64,000 nt of DNA, taken from Flexithrix dorotheae DSM 6795 (lineage in GTDB: Bacteria; Bacteroidota; Bacteroidia; Cytophagales; Flammeovirgaceae). A program made the position numbers and the translations under genes. Positions 6,520 to 26,334 of this stretch are shown here, piece after piece (the first letter of the stretch is position 1; every line of letters begins with the position of its first letter). The notes beneath the pieces are model-generated. The model did not search any database, was not told the DNA's origin, and was given only the letters and a program-made list of their open reading frames with translations. The DNA lies in NCBI RefSeq assembly GCF_000379765.1, contig NZ_KB903450.1:1-64000 (forward strand). The letters are read 5' to 3'.

Positions 6520-7377
6520 ATGTTTTCAATTCTTGTTCCCATCGATTTTTCCAAAACATCATTAAATGCAGTAAAATATGCGGTAAATTTTGCTCAGAAA
6601 TTTAATTCTACCATAACACTTTACCATAGCCTTTATGTATCGGTTAGTGAAATGGATTCTGGTATGGCAAATGATATATTGCGGGAAAGGAAATCAGATT
6701 TGCATAGTAAGCTTTCCAGAGTGGCTTTGCAATTTGCCGAATATACCTACGAGCAAACCGGTAAACCAGTGGAAATAAATACTTCGATGGGGGAGGGATT
6801 GCCTTCAGATAGTATTAAAACCCTGAGTGAAGGTGACCAATTCAATTTGATCATTATGGGAACTCAGGGGGAAAGAGGCTCTGATGAACAGAGTTGGGGA
6901 AGTATTACCACCAATGTGACCAGCCAGGTAGAAACCCCGGTGCTGGTGATTCCTTTGGAAAGTACTTTTAAGCCCTACGATAAGGTGGTTTATGCTACAG
7001 TTTTCGATAAAGATGATATTCCGGTAATTGATGAAATGCTGGCTTTTTCCGAGAAAATTGAAGCCTCACTGGTATGTGTACAAATCACCTCTACGGATGC
7101 TACCGAGCAAAAAAGAGCAGGCCAGAATCAAAAACTTCTGGAGAATTATTATTGGTTCAGCACCATTGAACAACTTAATTTTCAGGTTCGTGCTAATGAT
7201 AGCGTTGAGGCGGGAATAAAAGAATTTATTCAGGCTGAAAATGCAGATTTATTAATTGTTCACCCGGATAATCGGGAATTTGTGGGAAATCTGGACGAAA
7301 GTGTAACCAGAAATTTATTACTCCATATAGAAATGCCCACATTGGTGGCTAAAAATATTCGGAAAAAAAGTTCTTGA
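6520..7377 (+). CDS. Universal stress protein, second of the pair
   Basis: The 285-residue product has two UspA-like halves. The N-terminal half is the well-conserved one (FSILVPIDFSKTSLNAVKYAVNFAQ; binding loop MGTQGERGSDEQSWGSITTNV; TPVLVIPLE). The C-terminal half (about 148-280) keeps only the fold outline (DLLIVHPDNREFVGN) and no intact loop. The intact loop is therefore in opposite halves of the two neighbouring proteins. It follows 5574-6491 at 28 bases and ends at a strong terminator, giving a two-gene operon. Confidence 0.9.
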   Translation: MFSILVPIDFSKTSLNAVKYAVNFAQKFNSTITLYHSLYVSVSEMDSGMANDILRERKSDLHSKLSRVALQFAEYTYEQTGKPVEINTSMGEGLPSDSIKTLSEGDQFNLIIMGTQGERGSDEQSWGSITTNVTSQVETPVLVIPLESTFKPYDKVVYATVFDKDDIPVIDEMLAFSEKIEASLVCVQITSTDATEQKRAGQNQKLLENYYWFSTIEQLNFQVRANDSVEAGIKEFIQAENADLLIVHPDNREFVGNLDESVTRNLLLHIEMPTLVAKNIRKKSS

Positions 7378-7395
7378 TTTTTGAAGAAAAAATAT

Positions 7396-7430
7396 AAAAA
7401 AGTCCTGGCAAATATTGCCAGGACTTTTTT
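7396..7430. terminator. Bidirectional hairpin terminator
   Basis: A 16-base perfect stem, AAAAAAGTCCTGGCAA with TTGCCAGGACTTTTTT, and a short loop. It separates the universal stress pair from the convergent T9SS cargo gene. Confidence 0.92.
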
Positions 7431-7461
7431 TGGGTCAGAATAATTTATTTGATTTTGCTAA

Positions 7462-8397
7462 TTATTTCTTGATAAACCTTTTGGTGACAGTTCCGTCTGT
7501 GGAAATGATTTTATAGAAATAAAGACCATTTTCAAGATCACTAATATCTAAATCCTGGGTATATGTTCCGGCCTGTTTTTCTTCATTTATTACTGATTTT
7601 ACAAGCTCTCCCTGCTTGTTATGAATAGTGATTGTGACATTCCCCGCTGTTTCAATTGCATATTCAATTTGAGTATTATCGGTTCCGGGGTTTGGGAAAA
7701 TTAAAATATTCTGGTTTGCCCGGTCTCTATCTCCTCTACCACCAAAAAAATCACTTTCTCCGTCCCACAGCAAAAACATTACATCCGACTTTTCCAGCAT
7801 CATCATTTTATGAGGCATTCCTGCATTCCTGCCACCAAATCTTTTCCCTCCTTTACGGCCTTCTCCACGATGATCACTACCATTTCCTCTCCCGTCTTTT
7901 CTCCTTTCTTCGATTTCATCCATGTCTTCTTTGTATTTTTCCAAAATGGCATGGATATCTTCCTGCCAGGTTTTTCTATTTTGTGCCAGATCAACCATTA
8001 TTTTATCGAAAGTGCCTTCATGATTATCCACAATGACCCAGGCTTTATCCATAAACTTCCGGTGTTCCTTCAGCATTTCTCTCCGTTCTAATAATTCTGC
8101 ATCAGAAAGCTCGTCAGATGATCGTTTTGCTCTCATTTCTCTAATCTTTTCTTTATCCGATTCCATTTGGGAACGGATGTTTTCAATTTGGTCCTTCTCA
8201 GCCGCAGAGAGTTCAACCTCCAATTGTGCCCTTTTTTCTTGGAGTACAGGTTTGATGTTTTCCTCGAAATAGGCTTTCAACTCTTCTTTTAATGCTTTTC
8301 GGTCGAATTGTTTTTGGGCTACTGAAGCGGCTACAGAGATAAGCATAATAAAAAATAAGCCTATTCCGATACTCTTCCTTTTCAATGCATTTTTCAT
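7462..8397 (-). CDS. Secreted coiled-coil protein with T9SS C-terminal sorting domain
   Basis: The 311-residue protein has a signal peptide (about 1-27, ending SVAASVAQ). A long, highly charged helical region follows (about 30-165; KQFDRKALKEELKAYFEENIKPVLQEKRAQLE, SAAEKDQIENIRSQM), recalling Spy/CpxP-like periplasmic helical proteins. Next come a Gly/Arg/His-rich linker (RRKDGRGNGSDHRGEGRKGG) and a C-terminal type A sorting domain (about 232-311) starting ILIFPNPGTDNTQIEY and ending NGLYFYKIISTDGTVTKRFIKK. The sorting domain predicts export across the outer membrane and surface attachment or release. No T9SS machinery genes are in the window. The function of the helical part is unknown. Confidence 0.85.
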   Translation of the reverse strand: MKNALKRKSIGIGLFFIMLISVAASVAQKQFDRKALKEELKAYFEENIKPVLQEKRAQLEVELSAAEKDQIENIRSQMESDKEKIREMRAKRSSDELSDAELLERREMLKEHRKFMDKAWVIVDNHEGTFDKIMVDLAQNRKTWQEDIHAILEKYKEDMDEIEERRKDGRGNGSDHRGEGRKGGKRFGGRNAGMPHKMMMLEKSDVMFLLWDGESDFFGGRGDRDRANQNILIFPNPGTDNTQIEYAIETAGNVTITIHNKQGELVKSVINEEKQAGTYTQDLDISDLENGLYFYKIISTDGTVTKRFIKK

Positions 8398-20925: not shown

Positions 20926-20955
20926 AAAATAGTGCTGACGCTAAATTGTAAATAT
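20926..20955 (+). repeat. 30-base element, copy 1, overlapping a start codon
   Basis: Shares 26 of 30 positions with 21887-21916 (core TGCTNACGCTNAATNGTAAA). This copy runs into the ATG of the barrel protein gene (20954). Its role is unknown; it may be a shared regulatory site or a remnant of local duplication. Confidence 0.5.
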
Positions 20956-21751
20956 GGATTGTAGAAAACTAACCTTGATCATAAGCCTGTTTTATTTTTT
21001 TCAAATTGGAATAAGTGGGAAATCCTATGCCCATGATCCTACAGATACGCTTGGTATTGAGGGATTAAATTTGAAAGATGCTTTTTATTTTAAATTATAT
21101 TCCCATCCAATTTTAAGCTCTTTTTCTTTTAATGCCGGAATTGGAATTGCTGCTTATGGAGGAGAAATAAGTACCCCACCAGATTTTGCCGGACAGAATA
21201 ATCACCTTAATCCCCAATTAAATTTGGGGCTAGAATATAGATTGACCCACTTTGTTAGTATTCGTGCCGAATCCTCATTCTTTTCCCTAAAAGCTACAAA
21301 TTTAAATGATCCTGACAAGGCTTTTAAATCCAATAATATTGAGTTTTATGGGGCAATAGTTCATGATATTATTCCCAAAAAAAGTATTGAAAGTTATTAC
21401 AGACGATTTTCTCCTTATGTTTATGGGGGTATTGGCGGAGTATATTTTGACCCGAAAACCATTGATGGGGATGAATCATTGCTTATAGAAGAGGGTGATA
21501 CTGCAACTATCAGTCATTCTAACACTTCTATTATTTTCCCTATTGGCTTTGGTTTTAAATATTATTTTCACGAAAGCCTTAGTATGAGTATTGAAGGGGG
21601 GACCAGAATCACCAAAACTGATTTTTTTGACGGGTTTGAAAGTAAAAATGATCCGGATCCAAGAAATGATGTTTATTTTATAATTGGGGCCAAAATTAAT
21701 ATTCAGATACAAACCCGGTACAAATACAACAGACATCTCAAAAGAAAGTAA
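20954..21751 (+). CDS. Small outer-membrane beta-barrel protein
   Basis: The 265-residue protein has a signal peptide (about 1-26, ending SGKSYA) and an eight-strand-like barrel: FNAGIGIAAYGGEI, NPQLNLGLEYRLTHFVSIRAESSFF, PYVYGGIGGVYFDP, FPIGFGFKYYFHESLSMSIEGGTRITKTDFFDG, DVYFIIGAKINIQIQ. The pattern, including the GG(V)YF strand and the late TDY/FxxGF motif, resembles DUF6089/OmpW-like Bacteroidota barrels often near motility or secretion genes. It ends in a basic, charged tail. Directly upstream of the triple-TIR gene in the same orientation, and sharing an upstream element with it. Function is unknown. Confidence 0.8.
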   Translation: MDCRKLTLIISLFYFFQIGISGKSYAHDPTDTLGIEGLNLKDAFYFKLYSHPILSSFSFNAGIGIAAYGGEISTPPDFAGQNNHLNPQLNLGLEYRLTHFVSIRAESSFFSLKATNLNDPDKAFKSNNIEFYGAIVHDIIPKKSIESYYRRFSPYVYGGIGGVYFDPKTIDGDESLLIEEGDTATISHSNTSIIFPIGFGFKYYFHESLSMSIEGGTRITKTDFFDGFESKNDPDPRNDVYFIIGAKINIQIQTRYKYNRHLKRK

Positions 21752-21861
21752 ATTTCACTCCGAAAAGCTTCCTGCTACATCTATTTTAGCTAATGTACGC
21801 AACAATTTTCCCAGAAAGTAAAATATCAAAGAATTAAGGCTTAATCATCTGATAGTTAACA

Positions 21862-21875
21862 GACTAATTTTAGTC
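21862..21875. promoter_or_regulatory. Inverted repeat upstream of the triple-TIR gene
   Basis: GACTAA-TT-TTAGTC: 6-base arms with a 2-base centre, about 90 bases before the TIR gene start and just upstream of the shared 30-base element. Operator-like symmetry; function not known. Confidence 0.35.
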
Positions 21876-21886
21876 CTTTGCAGTTA

Positions 21887-21916
21887 AAAATAATGCTAAC
21901 GCTGAATGGTAAATAT
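21887..21916 (+). repeat. 30-base element, copy 2, upstream of the triple-TIR gene
   Basis: 26 of 30 bases match copy 1 (20926-20955). Here it begins 75 bases before the ATG of the TIR gene and carries ATATAAC where copy 1 has the start codon ATATGG. Confidence 0.5.
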
Positions 21917-21961
21917 AACAAGGCATTGTTTGCAGATTTTTAACACCACAATTTTTATTAA

Positions 21962-24793
21962 ATGTCAGAGGCTAAAATTTCTCCACATCAAAAGGATTTT
22001 CAATTTAAAAGCATTGCCCGGGATGAAGTTTTCATTTCCTATTCCAGAAAGGACCTCGAATTTGCAACCAAGTTAGTAAACAGATTAAATCTGGAAAATA
22101 TAGAGGCATGGTTCGATCAAAATGATATTCCGGAAGCAGTTGATTTTATAAGGGAAATTGAAATGGGAATTGCCAGTGCCAATTGCTTTCTTTTCATCAT
22201 TTCAAAGGATTCCGTTCAATCCAAATATTGCCAAAAAGAAATAAATACAGCATTAAAGTTTGGGAAAAGAATTATTCCTCTATTGTTGGATTTTCCAGGT
22301 GATGAATTGACCAATAAATACCTTCCAGAACCTTTAAGAAGGTTGAACTGGCTATATTTTGATGGCGAAAAAAATACCTTCGAGAAAGCATTTTTATCCT
22401 TGAAAAATGCGATCAATAAAGAAAAAGAATATGTAAATCTACATACCAATATTTTGCTGAATGCCCTGAAATGGGTGGAAAAAAAGAAGCATAATAATTA
22501 CCTGTTGGTGGGTGAGGAAAGGCTGGAAGCTGAAGACTGGTTAAGACAAAAGGATTTTGAAGGTCAGGCACCCTGTGAGCCTTCAGATTTACATTGTGAA
22601 TTTATCTGTGAAAGCGAAAAGAATGCTTTCAACCTGATGACTGAGGTGTTTATTTCTTACTCTCATGAAGATGAGGCTTTTATGGAAAAAGTAAAAAAAA
22701 GCCTTATGAGAAACAGCTATACAGTTTGGACCAGTAAGACAGATATTAAAACAGGGGTAAAGTTTAAGCAGGAAATTAATGCCGGGATTGAAGGGGCCAG
22801 TAACATTTTGTATTTGGTTTCCCCCAATTCAGTAAAATCTGAATATTGTCTTCAGGAACTTGAATATGCGGATAACCTTAATAAAAGAATTATTTCGGTA
22901 ATGGTAGAGGAAACGTCCTTGCATGAAATTCCTGATTTTATCAGTAGGATTCAATTCCTTGATTTTTCTGGTACTTCTCAGGATAAGGAATTGTTTCAAA
23001 ATGCAATGGACCAATTGGTTGGGGCACTGGATCAGGATAAGGACTACATTGAAAGGCACAAAATGCTATTGGTGAGGGCTTTGAAGTGGAGAGATCAAAA
23101 TGCCAACCTGAGTATCTTACTAAGAGGACATAATTTGGAAATTGCCAAAAGCTGGCTTAAAGAAAGTGAAAATAAGGGAAATTTTCCCCCCACAAATCTT
23201 CACAGAGATTTTATTGTGGAAAGTGAAAACAAAAGTGTTTCCCTGACTGTAGATGTATTTGTTTCCTATTCCAGAAGTGATTCAGACTTTGCCAGAAAGC
23301 TTAACGAAAAACTTCAGCAAAATGGAAAAACTACCTGGTTCGATCAGGAGTGTATATCAGCAGGGACTGACTTTAAGAAAGAAATCTATAAAGGGATTGA
23401 AGAATCGGAAAATTTCTTATTTGTCATTTCTCCCAAAAGCATTAATTCGCCTTATTGTGCCGAGGAAGTTGCCTATGCTGCCAGTTTAAATAAAAGGATA
23501 ATTACCGTAAAATATGCTTCGGTAAATATCAATGATCTTCCCAATGAGTTATCACAGGTGCAATGGATAGAATTCAGACATGGAGCAAGAGATTTTCAAT
23601 CGAGTTTTAGTGAGTTGCTAAGAACTATTGATACCGACAGGGATTATGTGCATTTGCATACCAAGTATTCTAAGAAGGCTTTTGAGTGGGAATGGCATCA
23701 GAAAAATAGTGAATTCCTTTTGGGGGAAGTTGAGTGTGGTGTGGCTGAAAACTGGCTTTTGCTGGCTGCAAAAGAGGTAAAAGAACCATATCCTACTCCA
23801 TTGCAGGAAAGTTATATTGAAGCCAGTAAAAAATATATTAATAAGCAAAAAGGAAAGGCAAAAAAACAGCAAAATGCTTTTTCTGTCATTGTTTCCATAG
23901 CCTGTTTACTTTCTGTAGGTATTGCCATTGTTTCTTGGCTAGGATATAAAAATATGGTGGATGGAGAGGAAGAAAGATATAAACAGGTATTAGAACTGGT
24001 GGGGAAGTTTAAGAAGGATCAGATTGAAAGAAGTTTTGAGCAGATGGAGACAAACCTGAATTACTTAAAGAGTTCTCCTCTTGTAATTCAGGGTATTCCC
24101 TTTTTTAATAAAGAAAGCCAGCATTATGATCATTACATAAATGTAAGGCCGCATAGTCACGATGCGAAAGCGTATCAGCATCATTATAAGGATTTGCAAC
24201 GGATTTTTTTACCTGTCCAGGAAAGTTACAAATACAAGGAAATTGTATTGGCAGATGAAAATGGAGCTATCATTTTCAACTCAAATGAAAAGGGCAAATA
24301 TTTACCAGGGGAAACCAAATCCAAGTTTGTTTATAAAAGGCCTCATGGTGTGGTGGCTTCCTGCAATTATATTACCTCAAGAAATGATGAAGAGATGTAT
24401 GTTATTTCTCCTCCATTTAAGGGGTCAGATGGACTTCCGGTAAGTGCTATTATTGTGATAAATATTTTAGATTATATTTCAGAGATCACAGAGGATAAGG
24501 GGAACGGACTGGGAAAAACAGGAGAGATTGTGGTATGTGGGAAGGTCAATGGAGATATGAAAATACTTACTCCACTAAAGCAAATGCAATTTGATAGGTA
24601 TCCTGTAAGTCTTAACAACACTCCGGGGTTTAGTTTTCCTGCAGTGAGGAAAGCACTGGATGAATTTCCGGAATATACTGAAAAATTGATGGATTATAAT
24701 CAGAAAGAAACCTTAACCTATTATGCGGGAATACCAAAAGTTAACTGGGGTATTGTGGTAAAAATAGAGGTGGACGAAATTCATGGAAATTAA
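21962..24793 (+). CDS. Triple-TIR membrane receptor-like protein with C-terminal Cache-like sensor
   Basis: The 943-residue protein carries three cytosolic TIR domains: about 21-150 (DEVFISYSRKDLEF), 227-345 (TEVFISYSHEDEAF) and 430-545 (VDVFVSYSRSDSDF). Each keeps the C-x-x-E of NADase TIRs (E93, E299, E502). A helical linker follows each one (HTNILLNALKW..LLVGEERLEAEDWL, then two cognates), of the type seen after TIR in TIR/nSTAND proteins. The TIR-plus-linker unit thus repeats three times at about 200-residue spacing. One membrane helix (about 638-662) precedes an extracytoplasmic domain with Cache/PDC features (IVLADENGAIIFNSNEKG; GLGKTGEIVVCGKVNGD). No kinase, NB-ARC or cyclase domain is present. 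NAD cleavage or nucleotide signalling on ligand sensing is inferred. Confidence 0.88.
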   Translation: MSEAKISPHQKDFQFKSIARDEVFISYSRKDLEFATKLVNRLNLENIEAWFDQNDIPEAVDFIREIEMGIASANCFLFIISKDSVQSKYCQKEINTALKFGKRIIPLLLDFPGDELTNKYLPEPLRRLNWLYFDGEKNTFEKAFLSLKNAINKEKEYVNLHTNILLNALKWVEKKKHNNYLLVGEERLEAEDWLRQKDFEGQAPCEPSDLHCEFICESEKNAFNLMTEVFISYSHEDEAFMEKVKKSLMRNSYTVWTSKTDIKTGVKFKQEINAGIEGASNILYLVSPNSVKSEYCLQELEYADNLNKRIISVMVEETSLHEIPDFISRIQFLDFSGTSQDKELFQNAMDQLVGALDQDKDYIERHKMLLVRALKWRDQNANLSILLRGHNLEIAKSWLKESENKGNFPPTNLHRDFIVESENKSVSLTVDVFVSYSRSDSDFARKLNEKLQQNGKTTWFDQECISAGTDFKKEIYKGIEESENFLFVISPKSINSPYCAEEVAYAASLNKRIITVKYASVNINDLPNELSQVQWIEFRHGARDFQSSFSELLRTIDTDRDYVHLHTKYSKKAFEWEWHQKNSEFLLGEVECGVAENWLLLAAKEVKEPYPTPLQESYIEASKKYINKQKGKAKKQQNAFSVIVSIACLLSVGIAIVSWLGYKNMVDGEEERYKQVLELVGKFKKDQIERSFEQMETNLNYLKSSPLVIQGIPFFNKESQHYDHYINVRPHSHDAKAYQHHYKDLQRIFLPVQESYKYKEIVLADENGAIIFNSNEKGKYLPGETKSKFVYKRPHGVVASCNYITSRNDEEMYVISPPFKGSDGLPVSAIIVINILDYISEITEDKGNGLGKTGEIVVCGKVNGDMKILTPLKQMQFDRYPVSLNNTPGFSFPAVRKALDEFPEYTEKLMDYNQKETLTYYAGIPKVNWGIVVKIEVDEIHGN

Positions 24794-25488
24794 TCTGTTT
24801 TAAATCGATAAGTACAAACAACATTTAATATCTTACATGCGTTTGTAATTTAATTAACAAGCTCCTTGAGCTTTTCTAAACTTTTTCGACTAAACAAACC
24901 AACCTGCTTCTACAACCAATAGGCAAAGTTTTAATTGACCAAAAAACTTGAGATAGTAATTTTTAAGCCGAATGGCTTATTATTCTTCAAATCATTCTTA
25001 CCTAATTTTAGGTACAGATGAAAAAACAGGATTCGATATTTCGTTAATTTACTCCTGGAAATAATACATTCTCTTCTGGTTTTTGTTCTTAAAACTCATC
25101 TGGTTTAATTATTCTTTAAGACTTACATGAATTCAATTTGGCAATTTAATTTTGTTTAGGCCTCAGGTTTTTCCTTCTAAAAGGATTTCTGAATAATACC
25201 TAAATGCTTTATTTATGACGTGAAATAAAAAAAGATAGTAATATAGTGCTCTGAGGACCTTTTTTTATAGTTTTTCAAGCATAAAGAAATATAAGATTAA
25301 CCTTGTTCAAATAAAATAATGAAATTCCGAATCGCTGGTTGAATTTCTTATTTTTAATAAAAACCCGGCTTTTTAAGCTGGGTTTTTTGTTTTAAAATAG
25401 TAATAAACAATAAAAAACAGTAATAAAAATTATTATTAAATACAAAACAGTGTTATATTGCAGTATTCGATAATAAAATGCCTGCTTT
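24794..25488. other. 695-base intergenic region, no protein gene seen
   Basis: Very AT-rich and closed in all frames at any useful length. It contains a small TAAGCC/GGCTTA hairpin at 24964-24979 and a good terminator at 25360-25388 that is 570 bases from the TIR stop codon. Either the TIR transcript has a long 3' end or a small RNA is made here; no matching strong promoter was recognised. Confidence 0.5.
25360..25388 (+). terminator. Hairpin terminator without an adjacent gene
   Basis: AACCCGGC pairs with GCTGGGTT (one G-T pair), 7-base loop, followed by six T. The nearest upstream plus-strand gene ends 567 bases away. Confidence 0.75.
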
Positions 25489-26334
25489 ATGAAAACTGAA
25501 ACTTCAATTAGCATTTTGGATTCTTTGAAGGTTTTTAAAAACCATGAAGACTACTTTCAAACTATTAGTAAGCTTGAAAAACCTGGAAAATGGATATTAG
25601 GACAATTTTTAACTATTAGCCTGTTTATTTTCGTCTATGGATTTGTAATGGGAATTTATCACAGCTTTTTCCAGGGCCTCTCTGCCGGATTAAAGCTGTG
25701 GATATTATTTTTCTCAAGTATTTTAATCTGCTTCCCATCTTTCTATGTAATCCAACTGATATTGGGTTCTCAAATAAAACTCAAACAGGTAATTGTGATT
25801 ATTCTTAGTGGATTTGTAATGACTTCCTCCATCATGCTGTCGTTTTCCCCGATTGCTGTTTTTTTTATGATTACCGGAAATAATTACAGTTTTCTCAAAC
25901 TTTTGCATGTGGGTATCTTTATTTTTTCGGGGGTATTCGGAATGAGAATCATAGTGGAAGCATTGAAATATTCATGCGAAAAAGAAAATATTTATCCAAA
26001 AACAGGTGTGACCATTTTCAGGGTATGGATAGTGGTCCTGGCCTTTGTAGGCATACAATTAGCCTGGAATTTAAGGCCATTTTTAGGAGACCACGACAGG
26101 CCTTTTGAATTTGTAAGAGACCAGGATGGAAATTTTTATACCGCAATTATTCATGCTACAAGAGATTTGGTAATTGGGGAAAAGAAAAGCAGGGGTGACC
26201 ATAATCAGATTCAAAAAAGGATGCCCAATGAATTAAATACGGATTCATCTTTTTATGATCAGCATTTAAACGATTCGATGAGCCCGGTGGTAATAGAAAA
26301 AGGGGATAGTTCAATTCAGAAGAATATCCAATAA
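25489..26334 (+). CDS. Multi-pass membrane protein, function unknown
   Basis: The 281-residue protein has five or six membrane helices (about 35-57, 66-90, 98-125, 133-155, 176-195) and a hydrophilic C-terminal tail of some 85 residues. I recall the block LAWNLRPFLGDHDRPFEFVRDQDGNFYTAI from Bacteroidota proteins often labelled actin-binding WH2-domain, a name with no functional support. No transport or enzyme motif is visible. The gene follows a 0.7 kb gap and is followed by a small HTH gene after 90 bases. A structural or sensory membrane role is only a guess. Confidence 0.75.
   Translation: MKTETSISILDSLKVFKNHEDYFQTISKLEKPGKWILGQFLTISLFIFVYGFVMGIYHSFFQGLSAGLKLWILFFSSILICFPSFYVIQLILGSQIKLKQVIVIILSGFVMTSSIMLSFSPIAVFFMITGNNYSFLKLLHVGIFIFSGVFGMRIIVEALKYSCEKENIYPKTGVTIFRVWIVVLAFVGIQLAWNLRPFLGDHDRPFEFVRDQDGNFYTAIIHATRDLVIGEKKSRGDHNQIQKRMPNELNTDSSFYDQHLNDSMSPVVIEKGDSSIQKNIQ

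What the first reader, a model, noticed from the sequence alone, without database searches (positions are those of the whole stretch)
21962..24793. Three tandem TIR domains on a membrane-tethered protein with a Cache-like outer sensor
Seen: a TIR-plus-helical-linker unit repeated three times (periodicity about 203-206 residues, each with C-x-x-E at E93, E299, E502), one membrane helix, and a C-terminal extracytoplasmic domain with Cache/PDC features and no second membrane helix. Known: many bacterial TIRs cleave NAD or make signal nucleotides, mostly in soluble defence or STAND proteins. Inference: this looks like a receptor that couples an outside ligand to TIR activity inside, roughly the logic of Toll-like receptors. 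I know of no described bacterial system with this order. Neighbours carry no usual defence effector, so self-contained action is likely.
Basis: partly seen in the sequence, partly recalled or inferred. Interest (0 to 1): 0.82.

Follow-up and report, generated by a model that had tools for sequence, protein, structure and literature searches.

The report
Bacterial membrane receptor with three TIRs
The gene encodes a bacterial cell-surface sensor wired to three immune-type TIR domains inside the cell; it belongs to a large, apparently undescribed receptor class of filamentous cyanobacteria and gliding bacteria that resembles animal Toll-like receptors in logic.

Summary
ORF 21962-24793 (943 aa) carries three TIR-plus-linker units, one membrane helix and a C-terminal dCache_1 ectodomain without a second membrane helix. 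The Cache is homologous to that of an order-wide SpoIIE-type phosphatase, cut just before TM2.

It is not unique. The genome has six further TIRx3-TM-X paralogues (X = WD40, WD40/TPR, WG+FGE), and dozens occur in filamentous cyanobacteria and Cytophagales. A second extracytoplasmic sensor, CHASE2, sits at the same place in 18 cyanobacterial proteins. TIR positions 1, 2 and 3 form three pure clades (117 proteins): the triplication is ancient and sensors are swapped. The units are not equivalent: the catalytic-type Glu is kept in all, but the middle unit keeps the BB-loop Asp (SARM1 D594) in only 10 of 117, and not here.

The two other Cache-type orthologues found share an adjacent outer-membrane barrel gene; a congener has a clean empty site. 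In cyanobacteria, scarce LSDAT (TRPM-SLOG) and SLATT genes cluster with these receptors, suggesting an ADP-ribose-type messenger and pore.

Most likely: a transmembrane receptor turning an envelope signal into TIR NAD+ cleavage. Anatomy is shown; enzymology, ligand and outcome are inferred.

The parts
21962..24793 (+). TIRx3-TM-dCache receptor gene, 943 aa
22016..22621 (+). TIR-linker unit 1 (residues 19-220), canonical; BB-loop Asp52, catalytic-type Glu93
22634..23230 (+). TIR-linker unit 2 (residues 225-423), degenerate BB loop (Ser258 in place of Asp), Glu299 kept
23243..23833 (+). TIR-linker unit 3 (residues 428-624), canonical; Asp461, Glu502; the most conserved unit
23798..23956 (+). continuous helix 613-665 in the AF2 model, from the linker of unit 3 through the membrane
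23876..23932 (+). single predicted membrane helix (residues 639-657), Lys/Arg-rich on the TIR side (positive-inside)
23972..24760 (+). dCache_1 ectodomain (residues 671-933), no second membrane helix after it
20954..21751 (+). outer-membrane beta-barrel protein (OMP_b-brl), conserved neighbour directly upstream in both Cache-type orthologues
21751..24788 (+). block cleanly absent at the syntenic site of a congener (G001:C94)

Best explanation
A transmembrane receptor. The C-terminal dCache domain in the periplasm senses a small molecule or an envelope state, perhaps with or through the outer-membrane barrel protein encoded just upstream. The change passes back through the stalk helix of Cache, the single membrane helix and the continuous helix of linker 3, and rearranges or clusters the three cytoplasmic TIRs. 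Units 1 and 3 then act as NAD+-cleaving TIRs; unit 2, with its lost BB-loop Asp, serves mainly as a spacer or assembly surface, so that a productive composite active site forms only on clustering. The product is either NAD+ loss or an ADP-ribose-type signal; in cyanobacterial members LSDAT and SLATT proteins are the likely reader and pore. Shown by sequence: order, topology signals, conservation, ancient triplication, swapped sensors, gene linkage. Inferred: ligand, NADase activity, activation by clustering, physiological outcome.
For: Three TIRs with SARM1/SPARTA-type fold. Catalytic-type Glu in 117/117 (unit 1), 112/117 (unit 2) and 112/117 (unit 3) of TIRx3 proteins from two phyla. BB-loop Asp, which I align to SARM1 D594 (D594A lowers NADase activity, PMC8266388), in 117/117 of unit 1, 115/117 of unit 3 and only 10/117 of unit 2. 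A membrane helix within 90 residues of unit 3 in 115/116, positive-inside in 110 against 2. Two sensor types known to be extracytoplasmic at the same place: dCache and CHASE2. Conserved adjacent outer-membrane gene. LSDAT, 1-2 copies per genome, within the ~5 kb flanks of 13 of 79 TIR loci, six of them also with SLATT.
Against: No enzymatic data. AF2 of the Cache part is poor (pLDDT 36 alone; only its distal half reaches about 75 in the full model), and profile searches of solved structures gave no significant Cache hit. The window's own genome has no LSDAT_prok gene, so the cyanobacterial reader cannot be carried over. A dCache normally signals through TM2, which is missing here. The ligand is unknown. 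Many members carry WD40 repeats after the helix, domains better known from the cytoplasm.
Confidence: 0.55

Rival explanations
1. The TIRs are non-enzymatic assembly domains: the receptor is a scaffold or adaptor (as TLR and MyD88 TIRs are) that recruits another TIR protein, not an NADase.
For: Linked repeats of one domain suit scaffolding; unit 2 has a broken BB loop; the genome has further single-TIR proteins that could be partners.
Against: The catalytic-type Glu and the BB-loop Asp are almost invariant in units 1 and 3 across two phyla, which pure scaffolding does not require.
Confidence: 0.25
2. An anti-phage abortive-infection device: Cache or the barrel protein senses phage attack at the envelope and the TIRs kill the cell by NAD+ depletion.
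For: Patchy presence with a clean empty site in a congener, many paralogues with swapped sensors, similarity to defence TIR models, and members mainly in filamentous or social bacteria, where conflict systems concentrate (PMC7159879).
Against: No defence or mobile-element genes recognised around the locus; Cache and CHASE2 normally bind small molecules; defence-model matches are by the TIR part only and far below NCBIfam cut-offs.
Confidence: 0.3
3. An ordinary envelope or nutrient sensor in which TIR chemistry tunes NAD+ metabolism without any suicide or immune role.
For: The Cache is homologous to that of a SpoIIE-type signalling phosphatase found throughout the order; paired with an outer-membrane barrel gene.
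Against: LSDAT/SLATT linkage in the same receptor class points to a messenger-pore pathway; the gene is dispensable in a congener.
Confidence: 0.25

Closest known systems
Toll-like / IL-1 receptor family
   Same: single-pass receptor, outer sensor, inner TIR; ligand-driven TIR clustering is the assumed logic
   Different: reverse order (TIR at the N-terminus), three TIRs, catalytic-type Glu kept, Cache or CHASE2 in place of LRR or Ig; no ancestry claimed
EACC2-caspase proteins with variable C-termini including CHASE2 (PMC8195603)
   Same: constant cytoplasmic effector module plus swapped sensors, sometimes extracytoplasmic CHASE2, in multicellular bacteria
   Different: effector is TIRx3 instead of caspase; no EACC2 or TRADD-N partner was searched for
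Thoeris ThsB and other defence TIRs
   Same: TIR family; an NAD+-derived product is likely
   Different: soluble, activated inside the cell, partner ThsA; none of this seen here
SARM1
   Same: TIR fold, Glu and BB-loop residues; activity depends on TIR clustering
   Different: one TIR, cytosolic ARM-SAM regulation by NMN/NAD+
dCache_1 sensors (chemoreceptors, kinases, SpoIIE-type phosphatases)
   Same: homologous ectodomain and its first membrane helix
   Different: C-terminal, without TM2, output on the N-terminal side
LSDAT/SLATT nucleotide-sensing systems
   Same: genes linked to TIRx3 receptors in cyanobacteria
   Different: not found with the window's own gene; no LSDAT_prok in its genome

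Membership tests
TIR domain superfamily (catalytic type) | TIR fold with profile match | tested here: met
TIR domain superfamily (catalytic type) | catalytic Glu and BB-loop Asp in each unit | tested here: inconclusive
   met in units 1 and 3; unit 2 keeps Glu, lacks Asp
TIR domain superfamily (catalytic type) | NAD+ cleavage | not testable with these tools
   needs an assay
dCache_1 | full-length double-Cache profile match | tested here: met
   near full length but below Pfam's cut-off alone; homologous set 21/21, best 1.1e-15
dCache_1 | extracytoplasmic location | tested here: inconclusive
   supported by prediction only: TM between TIRs and Cache, positive-inside, relatives lie between two TMs
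dCache_1 | predicted structure matches a solved Cache fold | tested here: inconclusive
   low-confidence model
Transmembrane sensor with output after TM2 (usual dCache receptors) | second membrane helix to a C-terminal output | tested here: not met
   protein ends right after the domain
Toll-like receptor | N-terminal LRR ectodomain, C-terminal TIR | tested here: not met
   order reversed, no LRR
Thoeris | ThsA or other Thoeris partner gene nearby | tested here: inconclusive
   none recognised by eye among neighbouring ORFs, not all profile-searched; NCBIfam Thoeris model 93.7 vs cut-off 220 bits
TIRx3-TM-variable-ectodomain class (defined here) | three position-specific TIR clades in order 1-2-3 | tested here: met
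TIRx3-TM-variable-ectodomain class (defined here) | membrane helix just after unit 3 | tested here: met

The most novel reading that the evidence does not exclude
Bacteria have an ancient, widespread class of transmembrane TIR receptors with one fixed TIRx3 signalling module, two catalytic TIRs around a degenerate one, and exchangeable outer sensors; at least in cyanobacteria they signal through an ADP-ribose-type messenger to a TRPM-like LSDAT reader and a SLATT pore.
Probability: 0.3. Interest if true: 0.88.

Novelty: new variant of a known kind. Interest (0 to 1): 0.7.

Why it matters
Bacterial TIRs are known mainly as soluble, inside-triggered defence enzymes. A large class that couples outside sensors (Cache, CHASE2) to a fixed triple TIR would show that Toll-like receptor logic exists in bacteria, and would offer tractable proteins in culturable cyanobacteria. 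The conserved asymmetry (canonical, degenerate, canonical) makes a concrete question testable: why three TIRs, and does a built-in broken BB loop set the activation threshold? The LSDAT linkage offers a route to a bacterial counterpart of ADP-ribose-gated TRPM signalling.

Tried and rejected
Structure of the Cache region alone from 3 sequences: unusable (pLDDT 36), so no fold search was made with it. Profile searches of solved structures with two Cache alignments: no significant hit. Foldseek of the full model: the hits listed are TIR-containing proteins. LSDAT_prok in the window's own genome: absent; its single SLATT/DUF4231 gene lies about 20 kb from one paralogue, not near this gene. The 281-aa membrane protein downstream as a partner: it occurs in the same four genomes but on other contigs than the receptor in the two orthologue genomes. 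Uniqueness of the architecture: rejected. Three equal TIRs: rejected for unit 2. Literature on triple TIR or TIR with Cache: nothing relevant held; TIR with CHASE2: one paper, in which CHASE2 is joined to caspase. Burroughs 2015, from memory the likeliest prior source on LSDAT/SLATT/TIR links, is not held.

Full report
WHAT IS THERE. The ORF at 21962-24793 is intact and 943 aa long. It has three TIR units with a helical linker each (residues 19-220, 225-423, 428-624), C-x-x-E at 93, 299 and 502, one membrane helix (639-657) and a C-terminal dCache_1 match (671-933). The N-side of the helix is rich in Lys/Arg, which places the TIRs inside. AlphaFold2 with 36 sequences gives the TIR units and linkers mostly at pLDDT 80-95 and one continuous helix, 613-665, from linker 3 into and through the membrane. 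The Cache part is poorly modelled.

IS IT A CACHE. On its own the Pfam match is below the curated cut-off. It aligns, from the membrane helix to the end, with the Cache sensor of a roughly 1150-aa protein found across the order, which in the own genome reads Cache-GAF-PAS-PAS-SpoIIE. All 21 members of that alignment match dCache_1, best 1.1e-15. In those proteins the domain lies between two membrane helices; the TIR protein ends just before the position of the second. So the sensor seems to have been fused with TM1 only, and any signal must go back through the N-terminal stalk (inference).

A CLASS, NOT A SINGLETON. The own genome has seven TIRx3 proteins in all, the others with WG+FGE, WD40 or WD40+TPR after the helix, and single-TIR relatives. 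A scan of genome contigs returned 79 loci, nearly all TIRx3, from filamentous cyanobacteria and Cytophagales. Contig lengths identify the congener G001 as Flammeovirgaceae bacterium MAG.050, so the window most likely belongs to that family (inference from the tool's kinship). Some record titles (Thalassobius, Thalassovita) look mislabelled. Among 117 TIRx3 proteins, 115 of 116 with enough sequence have a membrane helix right after unit 3, and its flanks are positive-inside in 110 against 2. Eighteen carry CHASE2, another extracytoplasmic sensor: three were checked with Pfam, the rest found with a profile built from five members. Fifteen of them form a clade and three lie elsewhere; the nearest relatives of the Cache type include WG/FGE-type proteins. 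Hence the sensor has been exchanged more than once.

THREE TIRS, NOT EQUIVALENT. In a tree of 351 units, positions 1, 2 and 3 are pure clades of 117 each, support 1.0, 0.997 and 0.92. The triplication therefore predates the spread over both phyla. The catalytic-type Glu is kept in 117, 112 and 112. The BB-loop Asp is kept in 117 of unit 1 and 115 of unit 3 (the other two have Glu) but only 10 of unit 2; here unit 2 has Ser258. D594A in SARM1, which I align to this Asp, lowers NADase activity (PMC8266388). I infer that units 1 and 3 are the enzymes and unit 2 is structural.

NEIGHBOURHOOD. Both Cache-type orthologues have an outer-membrane barrel gene directly upstream, 50-52% identical to the product of 20954-21751, although the rest of the locus differs. 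In the congener G001 the whole region is syntenic, the barrel protein is 82% identical, and the receptor gene is cleanly missing: window 21750 is joined to about 24788. One loss is the simplest reading, since the pair also exists in the other genus. The orthologue in G008 has an in-frame TAA at TIR unit 1, a pseudogene or an assembly error.

CYANOBACTERIAL CONTEXT. CHASE2-type genes often sit beside a two-partner-secretion transporter (ShlB/POTRA), a CHAT-TPR protein, DUF928 and TPS genes, again envelope-facing. LSDAT_prok (SLOG in TRPM, PF18171) occurs once or twice in each of 15 genomes checked, yet lies within the flanks of 13 of 79 TIR loci, six of them also with a SLATT/DUF4231 gene (representatives checked with Pfam). 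Nine further LSDAT copies, outside the loci already showing the link, were looked at: six lay within 10 kb of a TIR-repeat gene, one about 18 kb from a TIRx3 gene, two with none in the stretch fetched. The four Moorena loci are related, so the counts are not independent. The window's genome lacks LSDAT_prok, so this pathway is a model for the class, not shown for this gene.

MECHANISM. Best account: an envelope signal acting on Cache, possibly with the barrel protein, shifts the membrane helix and clusters the TIRs; units 1 and 3 cleave NAD+. The outcome is either NAD+ loss or a messenger. Rivals are a scaffold, an anti-phage device and an ordinary nutrient or envelope sensor; the last two differ from the best account in outcome rather than in anatomy, so the probabilities overlap.

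PRIOR KNOWLEDGE. The papers held describe TIR effectors and, for caspases, a constant module with variable C-termini including CHASE2 (PMC8195603), but no triple TIR or TIR-Cache; the one paper holding both CHASE2 and TIR joins CHASE2 to caspase. The library holds only openly licensed papers, and domain-architecture databases were not searched, so novelty is provisional.

Noticed in passing
L179 (G001:C94) 7176-8009 against window 21751-25489: Clean empty site: the congener keeps the barrel gene and the neighbours but lacks the receptor gene.
   Followed up: yes
L124 9079-10423; L157 412-2906; L161 8984-11875: LSDAT (TRPM-type SLOG) and SLATT genes beside TIRx3 receptors in cyanobacteria.
   Followed up: partly
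L157 1494-2906: SLATT/DUF4231 domain fused to a phage-lysozyme domain in one protein.
   Followed up: no
L186 1568-6082, L188 1483-5997: Proteins with five TIR-unit matches near LSDAT and SLATT genes.
   Followed up: no
L039 5218-9393: Own-genome paralogue with an extra N-terminal nucleoside 2-deoxyribosyltransferase-like domain before the three TIRs; a short gene of similar look lies just upstream.
   Followed up: no
L126 91-8931 and similar loci: TIRx3-CHASE2 next to two-partner secretion, CHAT-TPR and DUF928 genes.
   Followed up: partly
L090 5471-5487 (same gene as L010): The G008 orthologue has an in-frame TAA at TIR unit 1.
   Followed up: no
L046 2220-5678: SpoIIE-type phosphatase with a homologous Cache sensor, found across the order.
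   Followed up: partly
G000:C1:398516-398833 (L193): The only SLATT/DUF4231 gene of the own genome lies about 20 kb from a TIRx3 paralogue (L042).
   Followed up: no
L074 4888-5637 and 6078-9491: In another genome of the family a SLATT-like gene is divergent from a TIR-repeat protein.
   Followed up: no
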